Positions 15,935-20,831 of a stretch of DNA of 43,244 nucleotides are shown here, one piece after another. A program made the translations under genes and the position numbers. Source of the stretch: a virus; the IMG/VR virus record IMGVR_UViG_3300042868_004301, positions 1 through 43,244 of that record; one strand, written 5' to 3'. Numbering within the stretch: position 1 is the stretch's first letter; every line of letters starts with the position of its first letter. The notes under the pieces are model-generated. The model was given only the letters and a program-made list of their open reading frames with translations, searched no databases and had not been told where the DNA came from.

Positions 15935-16004
15935 GCACCTCAGACTGGACGCCAAGGCAGCACTGGAAGCAGCGCGTAGGGCGATGGTGGAAGGGAGTAA
16001 ATAG
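15825..16004 (+). CDS. Small coiled-coil phage protein, 59 aa
   Basis: ATG at 15825 gives MNQPKDLPNFAAWNQETLAKF followed by a charged helix (YLRMQAQQEEIEHLRLDAKA) with coiled-coil character, a type of small protein often found in phage early regions. It overlaps the preceding HTH gene by 110 bp in another frame. Its natural composition compared with the overlapping tail suggests this is the selected frame. Confidence 0.7.
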   Translation: MNQPKDLPNFAAWNQETLAKFCTDAYLRMQAQQEEIEHLRLDAKAALEAARRAMVEGSK

Positions 16005-16005
16005 T

Positions 16006-16293
16006 ATGGCAACGCCTGAGTCAAAGGTCAAAGCGAGAGTCAAGAAAAAGCTGGTTGAACTTGGCTTTTATTACTTCATGCCACCGGCCAACGGCTTCGG
16101 GCGTGCAGGGATACCGGACGTAGTGGGATGCAGAACGGATGGCCGGTTCTTTGGTATCGAGTGCAAAGCAGGCAAGGGTAAGACCACCGCGCTGCAAGAC
16201 CGGGAGCTTTACCGGATACAGCAAGCCGGGGGCATAGCCCTCGTGATTAACGAAGACAACTTAGACAAACTCAAGGAGTTATTAAATGAATGA
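16006..16293 (+). CDS. VRR-NUC family nuclease, 95 aa
   Basis: Compact PD-(D/E)XK nuclease of the VRR-NUC type: RAGIPDVVG (catalytic Asp), FFGIECKAGKGK (the E-x-K pair), then an ALQDRELYRIQQAGG helix and strand IALVINED. Stand-alone phage VRR-NUC proteins are candidate structure-specific nucleases or Holliday junction resolvases. The ATG at 16006 follows AAGGGAGTAAATAGT; a longer frame upstream to 15853 has an unnatural N-terminus and is rejected. It sits immediately before the DNA polymerase block. Confidence 0.9.
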   Translation: MATPESKVKARVKKKLVELGFYYFMPPANGFGRAGIPDVVGCRTDGRFFGIECKAGKGKTTALQDRELYRIQQAGGIALVINEDNLDKLKELLNE

Positions 16294-16573
16294 TGAACCA
16301 ATAACCGAAGAAAAATTTAAAGAAATAATTGATTCGCTGGACAAAGAAGAGCGTGATTATTTCCGCGAATGTGTTGAAGAAATGGTGCGCTGCTTTATGC
16401 CGAACACTGAAACACTGGGCGTGTTTGTTACCGCTACGCGCACTGGGTATGGCGCAAAAGTCTACGCAATGAACGCTGGCTCGACCGAGATAAAAATCAT
16501 GTTGGAGTCTGTGCTGTTCAGTAAATTTGAAGACGAAGCCGCAATGAAAGTACCCAAGGAGAAATTGAATTGA
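16286..16573 (+). CDS. Unknown protein, 95 aa
   Basis: MNDEPITEEKFKEIIDSL and an acidic helix (DYFRECVEEMVRCFMP) precede a beta-rich half (LGVFVTATRTGYGAKVYAM). Overlaps VRR-NUC by 8 bp, and its AAGGAG-containing end provides the ribosome site for the polymerase N-terminal gene. Function unknown; position suggests replication. Confidence 0.7.
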   Translation: MNDEPITEEKFKEIIDSLDKEERDYFRECVEEMVRCFMPNTETLGVFVTATRTGYGAKVYAMNAGSTEIKIMLESVLFSKFEDEAAMKVPKEKLN

Positions 16574-17883
16574 GCGCTCCCTACGACCGCATACTGACCA
16601 TTGACTTTGAAACGTACTGGGACAGCAAAAGCTACACGCTGTCCAAGATGACAACTGAGGAGTACATACGTGACGACAAGTTCTTGGCTTTCGGAGCCTG
16701 CATACACGAGTTTGGGGATGACAGACCCACACAGTGGTATCGAGGAGGTGACGAGCTTCATAGAGTCCTATCAACATACGACTGGGGACGAACCGCAGTC
16801 TTGGCACATAACGCCCAATTCGATGTCTCCATACTCTCTTGGCGGTATAACGTCAGACCCGCGTTTATCTTTGACACGCTGTCAATGGGGCGGGCTCTTC
16901 GAGGAGTTGAGGTTGGCAACTCTCTCGCCAAACTGGCCTCCGATTATTCCCTCCCCCCAAAGGGTACTGCTGTTTACTCCACTGACGGACTCAAAGCAAT
17001 ATCACAGGAAGTTGAGAAAGAACTGGCCGACTATTGCGCGCATGACGTATATCTGTGTGAAGAAATCTTCAAGCGCCTCGTTGCGGGCTACCCTGCTTCG
17101 GAACTACGCCTCATCGACATGACGCTAAAGATGTACACGCAACCTGTCTTGCAGTTGGACAAGCTCATGCTGGTCAATGCGTTGGAAGAAGAAAAGGAAA
17201 AGCGCGAAGAGCTACTGACTAGGCTGGGTGTGACTGATGCTGCGTTGGCAAGCAATGGGCAGTTTGCAGAACTGTTGCGCACCCTTGGCGTGGAGCCGCC
17301 GACCAAGAAGAAAAAGCCCACGGCAAAAACCCCTCACCCCAAGGGTGTCAACTTTGCATTCGCCAAGACGGACGCCATGTTCCAAGCCATGCTCAACGGG
17401 AGCAACGAGGATGTGGCACTGCTGTGCGAAGCTAGGCTCAAGGTCAAGTCCACCACCGAGCGCACACGGGCGCAGCGATTCTTGGAGATTTCCCAGCGCG
17501 GCCCGTTGCCTGTGCCGCTTAGTTATTACGGAGCCTTGTCGGGGCGGTGGACGGCTTGTTTAGTTGCAGATACAGAGGTTATTGTGTATGATCGGCACAA
17601 CGGCCAGTGCGTTAAACGTATCGTTGATGTACTGCCAGACGACCTTGTGTGGGACGGTATTGAGTTTGTTCAGCACGAGGGTGTTCAGTTCAGTGGGTAT
17701 AAAGAAGTAATGACTTATGACGGAATCACCGGCACTCCAGACCACAAGGTTTTTATCGACGACAACACAACCGTCAGCCTTCTCGATGCGCAGCAGAGAG
17801 GCCAGAGCATCATGGATGCAGCAGAACCCGACAGTGGGGCTGTGGCGGCTGCTAGGGCACGACTTAAAAGGCTCCGATGGTAA
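16570..17883 (+). CDS. DNA polymerase (family A), N-terminal part fused to N-intein
   Basis: 437 aa from a TTG start (AAGGAGAAATTGAA upstream, TTGA overlap with the previous stop). Residues 1-329 are the N-extein. It has a DEDD 3'-5' exonuclease domain with LTIDFETYWD (Asp12, Glu14), LAHNAQFDVS (Asp85) and LADYCAHDVYL (Tyr155, Asp159), then the start of the polymerase domain, ending at SYYGALSGRWTA just before motif A. Residues 330-437 are the N-terminal half of an intein beginning with Cys330 (CLVADTEV) and containing TGTPDHKVF. The ORF then stops; the rest of the polymerase is coded by the gene at 18514. Not a pseudogene: both halves carry matching intein blocks. Confidence 0.93.
   Translation: MSAPYDRILTIDFETYWDSKSYTLSKMTTEEYIRDDKFLAFGACIHEFGDDRPTQWYRGGDELHRVLSTYDWGRTAVLAHNAQFDVSILSWRYNVRPAFIFDTLSMGRALRGVEVGNSLAKLASDYSLPPKGTAVYSTDGLKAISQEVEKELADYCAHDVYLCEEIFKRLVAGYPASELRLIDMTLKMYTQPVLQLDKLMLVNALEEEKEKREELLTRLGVTDAALASNGQFAELLRTLGVEPPTKKKKPTAKTPHPKGVNFAFAKTDAMFQAMLNGSNEDVALLCEARLKVKSTTERTRAQRFLEISQRGPLPVPLSYYGALSGRWTACLVADTEVIVYDRHNGQCVKRIVDVLPDDLVWDGIEFVQHEGVQFSGYKEVMTYDGITGTPDHKVFIDDNTTVSLLDAQQRGQSIMDAAEPDSGAVAAARARLKRLRW
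17557..17883 (+). other. N-terminal split intein (IntN, 108 aa)
   Basis: Starts at the Cys codon 17557. Block A is CLVADTEVIVYDR; VWDGIEFVQHEGVQF follows; block B is DGITGTPDHKVF with the conserved T-x2-H. The ~40 residues after block B (DDNTTVSLLDAQQRGQSIM and following) match the end of a normal N-intein, and the last ~23 are coded in the overlap with the endonuclease gene. The piece is predicted to pair with the 26-residue C-intein at 18514 and splice the polymerase halves in trans. Confidence 0.9.
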
Positions 17884-18520
17884 GTGGCGCGTAGCATGTG
17901 TCTGCCGCTGCGGCAGGTATGCGGAACCGCGTTACAAGGACTTACGGGCAGGCGGGTCAAGAGGGTGTATGTCGTGCGTAACTAGCGACCGTATGCGTAT
18001 AGAGATTGCGCAGGCACCGGACAAGTACCCTCAGACAAAGCGCCGCAACCCACCGCGAGTACGGGTGCAGGTTACCCCCTACAAAGACCATGAGCTACGT
18101 GTCGTCCGCATCTTGCAGGGGGCAAAAGCTCGTTGTACAAACAAGCTCGAACCCGCATACAAAAATTACGGCGGAAGGGGCATCAAGTTTTGTTTTGCAT
18201 CGGTGCGTGAAGGAGTCTTGTGGGTCATGGAAAACTTGGGCGCTAGGCCAACGGACGCACACAGCATAGACCGTATCGACAACGAGCGCGGCTATGAGCC
18301 GGGGAACCTACGCTGGGCCACTCGTGCTGAACAGGCACGCAACAAGCGCAGCTACACCGGGCACGTTTACGGGAAGCGCCTCAAGCGGCTATTGGCACTA
18401 CGTCAAGACTACACATATGAAGGGTTGCGTAAATACGTGATAGCAGGCTTCAAGGACGAAGAGATCATAAACATGCCAAAGCCCAAGGGCGGCAGACCAA
18501 AAAAGGAGAAGAAATGTTAG
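17816..18520 (+). CDS. Free-standing homing-endonuclease-like gene inside split intein
   Basis: About 234 aa from ATG 17816 (MQQNPTVGLWRLLGHDLKG); the frame is open to 17717 but upstream sequence is antisense-like filler shared with the intein. The N-terminal zinc-knuckle-like segment is KWRVACVCRCGRYAEPRYK ... GCMSC. The middle has GAKARCTNK and YGGRGIKF, and the C-terminal block is HSIDRIDNERGYEPGNLRWAT followed by EQARNK. This architecture is seen in phage-borne HNH/Vsr-like homing endonucleases. It ends in a basic tail (KPKGGRPKKEKKC). The start overlaps the N-intein by 68 bp and the end overlaps the C-intein start by 7 bp. Likely the mobility factor that cleaves intein-less polA alleles; nuclease residues are not proven. 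Confidence 0.8.
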   Translation: MQQNPTVGLWRLLGHDLKGSDGKWRVACVCRCGRYAEPRYKDLRAGGSRGCMSCVTSDRMRIEIAQAPDKYPQTKRRNPPRVRVQVTPYKDHELRVVRILQGAKARCTNKLEPAYKNYGGRGIKFCFASVREGVLWVMENLGARPTDAHSIDRIDNERGYEPGNLRWATRAEQARNKRSYTGHVYGKRLKRLLALRQDYTYEGLRKYVIAGFKDEEIINMPKPKGGRPKKEKKC

Positions 18521-18591
18521 TACCTGTATACGACATCATGAACTGCGGCCCGCGCTCACGTTTTGTTGCCAACGGAAAAGTTGTGCATAAC
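18514..18591 (+). other. C-terminal split intein (IntC, 26 aa)
   Basis: MLVPVYDIMNCGPRSR then FVANGKVVHN, followed by Ser. Block F (VYDIMN..RF.ANG) and block G (VVHN|S) are intact. The piece starts only four residues before block F, shorter than the ~35 residues of typical natural C-inteins. Confidence 0.88.
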
Positions 18592-19593
18592 AGCAAGGGG
18601 TCAGCCATCAACATGCAGAACTTAAAGCGCGGTTCGTTCTTGCGCAAAGCCATCATGGCCCCTGACGGGTGTCAATTGGTGGTGGGGGATTTGTCCCAAA
18701 TTGAACCGCGTGTGCTGGCGTGGTTGTCTGACTACGAGGACATGCTGGACATTTTCCGATCAGGCGCTGACCCATACGCTGCATTTGGTTCGCAGATGTT
18801 CAACATCCCCGGCATGACCAAGGAGAGCCATTCTGATCTTCGCCAATCGAGCAAGTCTGCTTTACTGGGCTGCGGCTATGGGCTAGGGTGGGCATCGTTC
18901 GCGCAGCAGCTTCTGACCGGCTTCCTTGGCGCTCCGCCCGTGCGCTATGACAAGGACTTCGCCCGCAAGCTGGGCGTGGATGCGGTGTACGTACAGAAGT
19001 TCCTTGACTGGGATGACAACGTAATCAAGATGCTGGAGATTCCCCACGTTTGTACGGACAAGGAACTGCTGATTCACTGCGTAGCGGCCAAGAAAATCAT
19101 CGACATCTACCGCAACACGGCGCATCCGGTGGTATCATTTTGGGACATGTGCAGCGGCCTGATCGGTTCAGCGCTTGCGCAGGGCAAGGAGTTCAGGTAT
19201 AAATGCCTGACCTTCAGGAAGGGTGAGATTGAATTGCCTAACGGCATGAAGTTGCTGTACCCTGATTTGCGCCAAGTTGAAGATGACAAAGGTAGGAGCC
19301 AGTGGGTATACGGGCCAGACGCTACCAAACTCTACGCTGGCAAGATAACGAACAACGTAACACAGGCTGTTGCGCGTATCGTTATGACGGATGGGATGCT
19401 ACGCACATCGAAGAAGTACTTCGTGGCGGGCACGGTGCATGACGAGCAGATCGTCGTGGTGCCGGATGCAGAGGTTGAATACGCTAAGACTTGGGTTTTG
19501 GCGCAAATGACTATGGAGCCACGGTACATGCCGGGGATTCCATTGAACGCTGACGGTGGTGCGCATCGTCGTTATGGATTAGCAAAAGGATAG
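18514..19593 (+). CDS. C-intein fused to DNA polymerase (family A), C-terminal part
   Basis: 359 aa with its own ribosome site AAAGGAGAAGAA, so it is translated independently. Residues 1-26 are the C-intein (VPVYDIMNCGPRSRF, ending VVHN). Residues 27-359 are the polymerase: Ser27 as +1 nucleophile, SKGSAINMQNLKRGS, motif A LVVGDLSQIEPRVLAWL, motif B RQSSKSALLGCGYGLG and motif C VHDEQIVV, i.e. all three catalytic motifs of family A polymerases. Joined to the N-part it would give GRWTA-SKGSAINMQNL, a normal polA sequence, and a 662-aa enzyme. The next gene starts 9 bp downstream. Confidence 0.93.
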   Translation: MLVPVYDIMNCGPRSRFVANGKVVHNSKGSAINMQNLKRGSFLRKAIMAPDGCQLVVGDLSQIEPRVLAWLSDYEDMLDIFRSGADPYAAFGSQMFNIPGMTKESHSDLRQSSKSALLGCGYGLGWASFAQQLLTGFLGAPPVRYDKDFARKLGVDAVYVQKFLDWDDNVIKMLEIPHVCTDKELLIHCVAAKKIIDIYRNTAHPVVSFWDMCSGLIGSALAQGKEFRYKCLTFRKGEIELPNGMKLLYPDLRQVEDDKGRSQWVYGPDATKLYAGKITNNVTQAVARIVMTDGMLRTSKKYFVAGTVHDEQIVVVPDAEVEYAKTWVLAQMTMEPRYMPGIPLNADGGAHRRYGLAKG

Positions 19594-19602
19594 GAGAAGT
19601 AA

Positions 19603-19920
19603 ATGGCAACAAAAGAAAAAAACCCAATTCCATGCAGGCTGCGCATTGGGAACAAAAAGTACTCGGTTGAGATTGTCGAAGCCATGCTTAAAAAAGCATG
19701 GCAAGGTTCGATTCAGTACGACAACCATCGCATTCAAATCGCCCGCAACAGCAACGTATCGGGCCGCAGGTTTAAAGACCACGAAATGCACGCTACGTTT
19801 TGGCACGAACTCACGCATGCAATCTTGCACGATATGGATCACTCACTGCACTTGAACGAAAAGTTTGTGGAAGATTTTTCAACACGACTGGCGCAAGCCG
19901 TAAAGACAGCGAGGTTCTAA
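19603..19920 (+). CDS. Small zincin-like metalloprotease, 105 aa
   Basis: After GATAGGAGAAGTAA. Contains HATFWHELTHAILHDM with the HExxH motif (His68, Glu69, His72). A third ligand could come from the following D/H-rich stretch (DMDHSLH) or Glu86. It resembles stand-alone phage zincins with an ImmA/IrrE-like core. Residues 1-55 are beta-rich and basic. The target is unknown; such proteins may cleave a regulator or host factor. Lies between the polymerase and a RecB-like nuclease. Confidence 0.75.
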   Translation: MATKEKNPIPCRLRIGNKKYSVEIVEAMLKKAWQGSIQYDNHRIQIARNSNVSGRRFKDHEMHATFWHELTHAILHDMDHSLHLNEKFVEDFSTRLAQAVKTARF

Positions 19921-20586
19921 ATGAAAGTAATAGCGTGGAGTCACAGTGCCCTAAAAGACTACGAGGGATGCCCCAAGCGGTATCAAGAAATCAAAGTCTT
20001 AAAGAACTTCCCGTTCACTGAGACTGAGGCCACAAGGTACGGCAACAAAGTCCACAAAGCGTTGGAGTTTTACATCCGTGACAACACGCCAGTGCCCGAA
20101 GCCTACGCGCAGTTTGTTCCCGTGGTCGATGCGCTACTCAAAAAGCCCGGACGCAAACTAGCTGAGCAGCAGATGGCGCTGACCAAAGAACTTCAGCCGT
20201 GTGATTGGCGTGCAAAAAATGTGTGGGTGCGCGGCATTGCCGACATGCTCATCATCGACGACGAGAACATGACTGCGTGGGTGGTGGATTGGAAAACGGG
20301 CTCGGATAAATACCCTGACCGTGACCAATTAAAACTCATGTCGATCATGGTGTTCGCACACTACCCGCACATCCGCAAGGTTAACTCCGCGCTGTTGTTC
20401 ATAGTCAAGGGCAGCATGGTCAAGCACAGCATGACGCACGACCAAGCAGACGCCCATTGGTGGGATTACCGTGAGAGGGCTGCACGCATTGAGCAAGCCT
20501 ATGAGACAGGCGTGTGGAACGCCAAACCTTCGCCGCTATGTCCGTGGTGTCCGGCAACCACTTGTGTACATCACCCTAAACACTGA
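19921..20586 (+). CDS. Cas4/RecB-like PD-(D/E)XK nuclease, 221 aa
   Basis: Starts directly after the previous stop. Motifs: WSHSALKDYEGCPKRY (Cys17), GNKVHKALEF (His45), VRGIADML (Asp108), VVDWKTG (Asp123, Lys125) and QLKLMSIMVF, then a C-terminal CPWCPATTC (Cys207, 210, 215). One N-terminal plus three C-terminal cysteines is the pattern of a 4Fe-4S cluster in Cas4/AddB-type nucleases. Predicted single-strand exonuclease in recombination or end processing, here next to polymerase and helicase rather than CRISPR genes. Confidence 0.9.
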   Translation: MKVIAWSHSALKDYEGCPKRYQEIKVLKNFPFTETEATRYGNKVHKALEFYIRDNTPVPEAYAQFVPVVDALLKKPGRKLAEQQMALTKELQPCDWRAKNVWVRGIADMLIIDDENMTAWVVDWKTGSDKYPDRDQLKLMSIMVFAHYPHIRKVNSALLFIVKGSMVKHSMTHDQADAHWWDYRERAARIEQAYETGVWNAKPSPLCPWCPATTCVHHPKH

Positions 20587-20597
20587 AAGAAAACATC

Positions 20598-20831
20598 ATG
20601 GCAACTCGTGACTACAAAAAGGAATACAAGCAAGACTTAAAGACCGGCAAATCAGGGCCGGACTCAGACCAACATGAACGCCAGCGTGCAAGGCGTGCGT
20701 ACGATGCCAAGGGTGTTGACCGCGCTGGTAAAGACATCGACCACGTTAAACCGTTGCGCAAAGGCGGTAAGTCAACACCGGGCAATTTGAGACTACGCAG
20801 CAAGAGCGCCAATCAAGGCGACAACAAATAA
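20598..20831 (+). CDS. Small HNH endonuclease-like protein, 77 aa
   Basis: KDIDHVKPLRKGGKSTPGNL is a compact HNH core: Asp48-His49, the GG turn, Asn62, then Asn71. The first 40 residues are highly charged. It could nick DNA as a small homing-type nuclease or act in replication/recombination. No separate insertion signature is visible around it; it fits tightly between the Cas4-like and helicase genes. Confidence 0.75.
   Translation: MATRDYKKEYKQDLKTGKSGPDSDQHERQRARRAYDAKGVDRAGKDIDHVKPLRKGGKSTPGNLRLRSKSANQGDNK

What the first reader, a model, noticed from the sequence alone, without database searches (positions are those of the whole stretch)
16570..19593. Fractured DNA polymerase: split intein with a free-standing homing endonuclease gene between the halves
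The family A polymerase is coded as two separate ORFs. The first ends in an N-intein (Cys330 block A, TPDH block B), the second starts with a C-intein (VYDI...FVANG..VVHN|S). Joining the exteins gives GRWTA-SKGSAINMQNL, a normal polA sequence, and a 662-aa enzyme with all exo and pol motifs. An endonuclease-like gene fills the gap and overlaps both sides. Split inteins with endonuclease genes between their halves are known from environmental phage sequences for a few genes (gp41, NrdA/NrdJ, IMPDH types). This arrangement in a family A DNA polymerase, with this endonuclease type, may be new.
Basis: partly seen in the sequence, partly recalled or inferred. Interest (0 to 1): 0.9.

Follow-up and report, generated by a model that had tools for sequence, protein, structure and literature searches.

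The report
Phage polymerase split by mobile intein
A phage DNA polymerase gene is broken in two by a self-splicing protein element with a DNA-cutting enzyme gene wedged between its halves; relatives show that the whole cassette moves between phages, and that related elements hide the enzyme gene in an overlapping reading frame.

Summary
The family A polymerase is coded as N-extein + 108-aa N-intein (16570-17883), an out-of-frame HNH-type gene, and 26-aa C-intein + C-extein (18514-19593). Removing exactly 1035 nt gives the uninterrupted gene of 90 distinct relatives. It is no assembly artefact: 35 catalogued loci share the split at this site. All splicing residues are conserved, intein halves and nuclease are under strong purifying selection, and the C-half has its own ribosome site and start codon. 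The cassette is 99.9-100% identical between polymerases whose N-exteins are only 68-70% identical, so it moves. Trans-splicing and homing are inferred, not shown.

It belongs to the known 'fractured gene' class; split inteins are known in phage family B polymerases (with an HNH gene between the halves in MIJ3). Apparently new: a widespread family A version, its intermediates, and over 50 contiguous polA inteins whose HNH gene lies in another reading frame; there the intein frame is kept free of stops but is otherwise little constrained. This suggests how split inteins may arise.

The parts
16570..17556 (+). N-extein of the family A DNA polymerase (329 aa; 3'-5' exonuclease and first part of the polymerase, up to GRWTA)
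   Evidence: contiguous with the C-extein in 90 distinct relatives
17557..17883 (+). N-intein (108 aa, Cys1, TPDH block B) and stop codon
17717..18520 (+). HNH-type endonuclease ORF in the +1 frame relative to the N-intein; start codon uncertain (17717, 17786 or 17816)
   Evidence: phrog_374 E=2.9e-31; conserved in all but one split relative; purifying selection
18503..18508 (+). AAGGAG, Shine-Dalgarno-like site of the C-half, inside the end of the HNH gene
   Evidence: SD-like site in 31 of 35 split loci
18514..18591 (+). C-intein (26 aa, VYDI...VVHN) with its own ATG
18592..19593 (+). C-extein of the polymerase (333 aa, Ser+1, pol motifs A, B, C) and stop codon
17557..18591 (+). the mobile cassette as a whole: 1035 nt inserted in the T/DX2GR motif
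   Evidence: absent to the base in empty alleles; 99.9-100% identical between diverged polymerases in related contigs

Best explanation
A mobile split intein sits in the T/DX2GR motif of a phage family A DNA polymerase. Shown by sequence: two polymerase halves, each fused to one part of a class 1-type intein (Cys1, TxxH, His-Asn, Ser+1); an HNH-type endonuclease gene in another frame between them; an independent start signal for the C-half; and horizontal movement of the whole cassette in related phages. Inferred: the halves are translated separately, the 108-aa and 26-aa fragments assemble and splice in trans, joining Ala329 to Ser330 of the mature 662-aa polymerase; and the nuclease cuts cassette-free alleles near the junction during co-infection, so that repair copies the cassette into them (homing).
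For: Exact empty alleles. All splicing residues in 37/37 intein alleles and Ser/Cys at +1 in 37/37. dN/dS 0.04-0.07 (N-intein), 0-0.05 (C-intein) and pN/pS 0.14 (HNH), against 2.45 for the control frame. C-half start ATG/GTG in 30/35 and SD-like site in 31/35. Halves in different frames in most relatives. 108+26 = 134 aa equals contiguous relative L247, whose model has pLDDT 91 and HINT-fold matches including gp41-1. Insert 99.9-100% identical while N-exteins are 68-70% identical. Window allele nested among 18 empty alleles while its intein groups with inteins of other polymerases.
Against: No splicing, cleavage or expression data. The C-intein is short (26 aa). The nuclease alignment has no invariant histidine, no Pfam family at threshold and no PDB fold match, so its activity is uncertain. 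The joined intein of the window itself was not modelled, only a contiguous relative. Transfer could be ordinary recombination rather than homing.
Confidence: 0.88

Rival explanations
1. The polymerase works as two non-covalently joined subunits ('gene in pieces', like the endonuclease-split ribonucleotide reductase cited in PMC10448857), and the intein remnants do not splice.
For: The C-half has its own start signals, and separate halves could in principle associate.
Against: Unneeded intein halves would decay, but they are the most constrained parts of the locus (dN/dS 0-0.07), with all catalytic residues kept in 37/37 alleles. The break lies inside a core polymerase motif.
Confidence: 0.05
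2. The intein splices, but the HNH gene is no longer an active homing endonuclease (a resident gene or decaying passenger).
For: No invariant histidine in the nuclease alignment; L200 has lost the nuclease yet keeps the split intein.
Against: The nuclease frame is under strong purifying selection, and the cassette recently moved with an upstream boundary exactly at the intein, which fits active homing.
Confidence: 0.15
3. The interruption is a self-splicing intron, or an assembly or frameshift artefact of an intact gene.
For: Such cases exist in phage polymerase genes; Sodalis phage SO-1 polA is annotated that way.
Against: No Rfam match at E<=1 in 16000-20000; identical structure in independent contigs; 9 in-frame stops between the halves; intein motifs under selection.
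Confidence: 0.02

Closest known systems
Pseudomonas jumbo phage MIJ3 split DNA polymerase B (orfs 153-155, PMC6892783); cf. Aes123 PolB1 split intein (PMC11923092)
   Same: Phage DNA polymerase in two ORFs with N- and C-intein parts; in MIJ3 an HNH endonuclease gene lies between them
   Different: Family B polymerase, different insertion site and intein; longer C-intein in Aes123 (39 aa) and no cysteine nucleophiles there
Fractured genes with split inteins (Dassa et al. 2009; gp41-1, NrdJ-1 and others)
   Same: Conserved enzyme broken by a split intein with a free-standing endonuclease gene between the halves; gp41-1 and NrdJ-1 are among the Foldseek matches
   Different: Here family A polymerase and an HNH-type rather than Vsr-like nuclease (nuclease type of Dassa's set from memory; paper not held), a nuclease ORF overlapping both halves, and a 26-aa C-intein
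ShiLan insertion element (out-of-frame HNH in a phage methylase, PMC11855218)
   Same: HNH endonuclease hidden in another frame of an insert that is read through by the host gene
   Different: ShiLan has no splicing domain; the contiguous polA relatives found here are true inteins, and the window's version is split

Membership tests
Class 1 intein | Cys/Ser nucleophile at position 1, TxxH in block B, penultimate His, terminal Asn, Cys/Ser/Thr at +1 | tested here: met
   Present in the window and in 37/37 alleles at this site
Class 1 intein | HINT fold | tested here: met
   Model of contiguous relative L247, pLDDT 91, matches NpuDnaB, gp41-1 and Ssp DnaB inteins; the window's own joined halves were not modelled
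Naturally split intein / fractured gene | Enzyme coded by two ORFs carrying N- and C-intein, each with its own start, and an endonuclease gene between | tested here: met
Naturally split intein / fractured gene | Trans-splicing to a ligated product | not testable with these tools
   Needs co-expression
HNH homing endonuclease | HNH family profile match | tested here: met
   phrog_374 2.9e-31 and phrog_3377 1.2e-26; Pfam HNH_3 only below threshold, in 4 of 31 members
HNH homing endonuclease | Conserved catalytic His/Asn residues | tested here: inconclusive
   Invariant D176, R177, D179, N180, N188, N200 but no invariant His in 31 sequences
HNH homing endonuclease | Mobility into empty alleles | tested here: met
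   Empty and occupied alleles; cassette 99.9-100% identical in diverged genes; cleavage itself not testable here
Family A DNA polymerase | Exo and pol motifs A, B, C in the joined product | tested here: met

The most novel reading that the evidence does not exclude
Phage polA inteins commonly carry their homing endonuclease as a gene in another reading frame, so that the intein frame across it is passenger sequence kept only free of stops. Such overlapping-frame inteins are the forerunners of split inteins: once a stop and an internal start appear, the intein becomes naturally split (the window), and if the nuclease is later lost a bare split mini-intein remains (L200).
Probability: 0.4. Interest if true: 0.75.

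Novelty: new variant of a known kind. Interest (0 to 1): 0.62.

Why it matters
How naturally split inteins arise, and how endonuclease genes invade inteins, is an open question, and split inteins are major protein-engineering tools. Here one insertion site offers empty, contiguous, split-with-nuclease and split-without-nuclease alleles, with a cassette near-identical between diverged genes, so the steps can be tested directly. It also supplies a new set of natural Cys1 split inteins with a very short 26-aa C-part. The overlapping-frame nuclease in contiguous polA inteins is also a likely source of misannotation.

Tried and rejected
Group I/II intron: no Rfam hit at E<=1. Stop readthrough or frameshifting joining the halves: 9 in-frame stops in the window and different frames in most relatives. 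Artefact: exact copies in other contigs. Close relatives of the polymerase in isolated phages: all below 60% identity; no split version at this site among isolated phages in the tblastn hits inspected, only contiguous inteins. Foldseek of the nuclease model (pLDDT 86, pTM 0.47) found nothing significant. PDB sequence search of the N-half: nothing relevant. Intein tree: 110 columns, too weak to say whether contiguous L247 and L226 are ancestral or re-fused. The deep split-only clades of the extein tree are biased, because those loci were fetched by their inteins. Dassa et al. 2009 is not held.

Full report
Observation. The N-half (437 aa, TTG start at 16570) carries the exonuclease and the first polymerase part, then from Cys330 a 108-aa N-intein. 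The C-half (359 aa) starts with a 26-aa C-intein ending His-Asn, then Ser and the rest of the polymerase. The joined exteins are 662 aa with exo motifs at 12, 80 and 155 and pol motifs at 362, 413 and 611. PHROG and Pfam agree on a family A polymerase. The middle ORF matches PHROG HNH families (phrog_374, 2.9e-31).

Empty and occupied alleles. Two scans of IMG/VR brought in mostly uninterrupted polymerases; 90 distinct ones abut at exactly the predicted junction with no extra base. Nine sequences (window, L002, L003, L049, L055, L058, L060, L061, L081) carry an insert of exactly 1035 nt there, in four versions; a fifth version (L168) is 1032 nt. L081 (from a 55,987-base contig) and L001 are 100% identical to the window over 11,311 and 6,365 bases, so the structure was assembled more than once.

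Wider family. A scan with an N-intein alignment showed the same break in many more contigs, most with 42-62% N-intein identity. I catalogued 35 split loci. In 34 the HNH gene lies in the +1 frame relative to the N-intein. The exception, L200, has no nuclease: its insert is 407 nt, and the C-half starts a few bases after the N-half stops. In most loci the C-half is in the third frame, so the halves must be made separately. The C-half start codon is ATG or GTG in 30/35, and an SD-like sequence precedes it in 31/35. Two contiguous mini-inteins sit at the same site: L247 (Bacillota MAG, 134 aa) and L226 (Moraxella phage type, 139 aa). The window's 108 + 26 equals 134, so no intein residue is missing at the break.

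Selection and structure. Across four insert versions dN/dS is 0.04-0.07 for the N-intein before the overlap and 0-0.05 for the C-intein; mean pN/pS is 0.14 for the HNH frame, while frame 0 read across the HNH gene gives 2.45. Cys1, TxxH, penultimate His and final Asn are present in 37/37 intein alleles, and the +1 residue is Ser or Cys in 37/37, while 26 of 90 empty alleles have Ala there (relatedness not corrected for). AlphaFold of contiguous L247, with an alignment that includes the separate halves, gives pLDDT 91; only about residues 85-108 are poorly defined, which is where the others are broken. Foldseek finds NpuDnaB, gp41-1, Ssp DnaB and NpuDnaE inteins.

Mobility. The insert of L055 is 99.9-100% identical to those of L049, L060 and L061, while their N-exteins are only 68-70% identical in nucleotides; identity steps from about 85% to 100% at the first intein codon. 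The window's nearest polymerases are empty (L010, 92% aa identity), and it sits alone among 18 empty alleles. Its intein groups with inteins from other polymerases (98/94 support). This is the pattern of homing, although ordinary recombination is not excluded.

Out-of-frame nucleases in contiguous inteins. Public phage polymerases with inteins at other sites (Sodalis SO-1, Salmonella Ijeoma, EBPR siphovirus 2, Pseudomonas MR14, Shewanella SFCi1, Streptococcus Javan phages, Vibrio 97.13) have an unbroken intein frame, yet the HNH gene is coded in the +1 or +2 frame across it. An HMM of the window's nuclease family found over 50 such fully overlapped cases in the loci held; eight checked host ORFs are all family A polymerases. 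In close pairs the HNH frame has pN/pS 0.08-0.24 while the intein frame over the same bases has 0.71-1.77. For the two closest pairs that is like the unread third frame (1.47-1.71), but the intein frame has no stop and the third frame 11-14. So that stretch of the intein frame seems constrained mainly to stay open. Several polymerases carry both types, the split intein at this site and a contiguous one with a hidden HNH further on (L191, L197, L198, L199, L202, L206, L208).

Mechanism. Shown: two-part coding, conservation of the splicing residues, selection, mobility. Inferred: trans-splicing to the 662-aa enzyme; cleavage of empty alleles by the HNH protein; origin of the split from an overlapping-frame intein by stops in the passenger frame plus an internal start, with L200 as a later loss of the nuclease. 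The last step is only one reading: contiguous L247 and L226 fall among split ones in a weak tree, so re-fusion is also possible.

Known work. A split intein with an HNH gene between its halves in a phage family B polymerase was reported for MIJ3 (PMC6892783), and the Aes123 PolB1 split intein has been studied biochemically (PMC11923092). Fractured genes in general were described by Dassa et al. 2009, which is not held. An out-of-frame HNH in a non-intein insert is known (ShiLan, PMC11855218). I found no paper in the searchable library that reports the family A version or out-of-frame HNH genes inside true inteins; most subscription papers lie outside that library, so novelty is provisional.

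Noticed in passing
L158, L159, L161-L166, L207, L217, L219, L225, L248, L251, L261 and others: Over 50 contiguous polA inteins carry an HNH gene in another reading frame; the HNH frame is under purifying selection while the intein frame over it is open but otherwise evolves nearly freely.
   Followed up: partly
L200:5001-5407: Split intein at the same polA site without any endonuclease gene; the two halves are separated by only a few bases.
   Followed up: partly
L191, L197, L198, L199, L202, L206, L208: Polymerase genes with two inteins: the split one at the window's site and a contiguous one with a hidden-frame HNH downstream.
   Followed up: partly
window 17744-18517; alignment A3: The HNH-type nuclease family has invariant D-R-x-D-N, N-x-R-W and four Cys but no invariant histidine, and its model has no PDB fold match; the active site is unclear.
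   Followed up: partly
L158:2097-5285 (Sodalis phage SO-1 gp38/gp39): Annotated as a polymerase with a type I self-splicing intron; the sequence reads as an intact intein with an HNH gene in another frame.
   Followed up: partly
L157:2806-3738 (Moraxella phage Mcat21): A contiguous mini-intein of this family sits in a 310-aa protein that keeps only a short polymerase-like stretch around the site.
   Followed up: no
L108:6312-6452: A further intein-like sequence (49% identity to part of the N-intein) lies in the C-extein after about residue 94; the contig ends there.
   Followed up: no
window 20598-20831: A small HNH-like ORF (77 aa, with DIDHVKPLRKGGKSTPGNLRLRSKSAN) lies downstream of the polymerase genes.
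   Followed up: no
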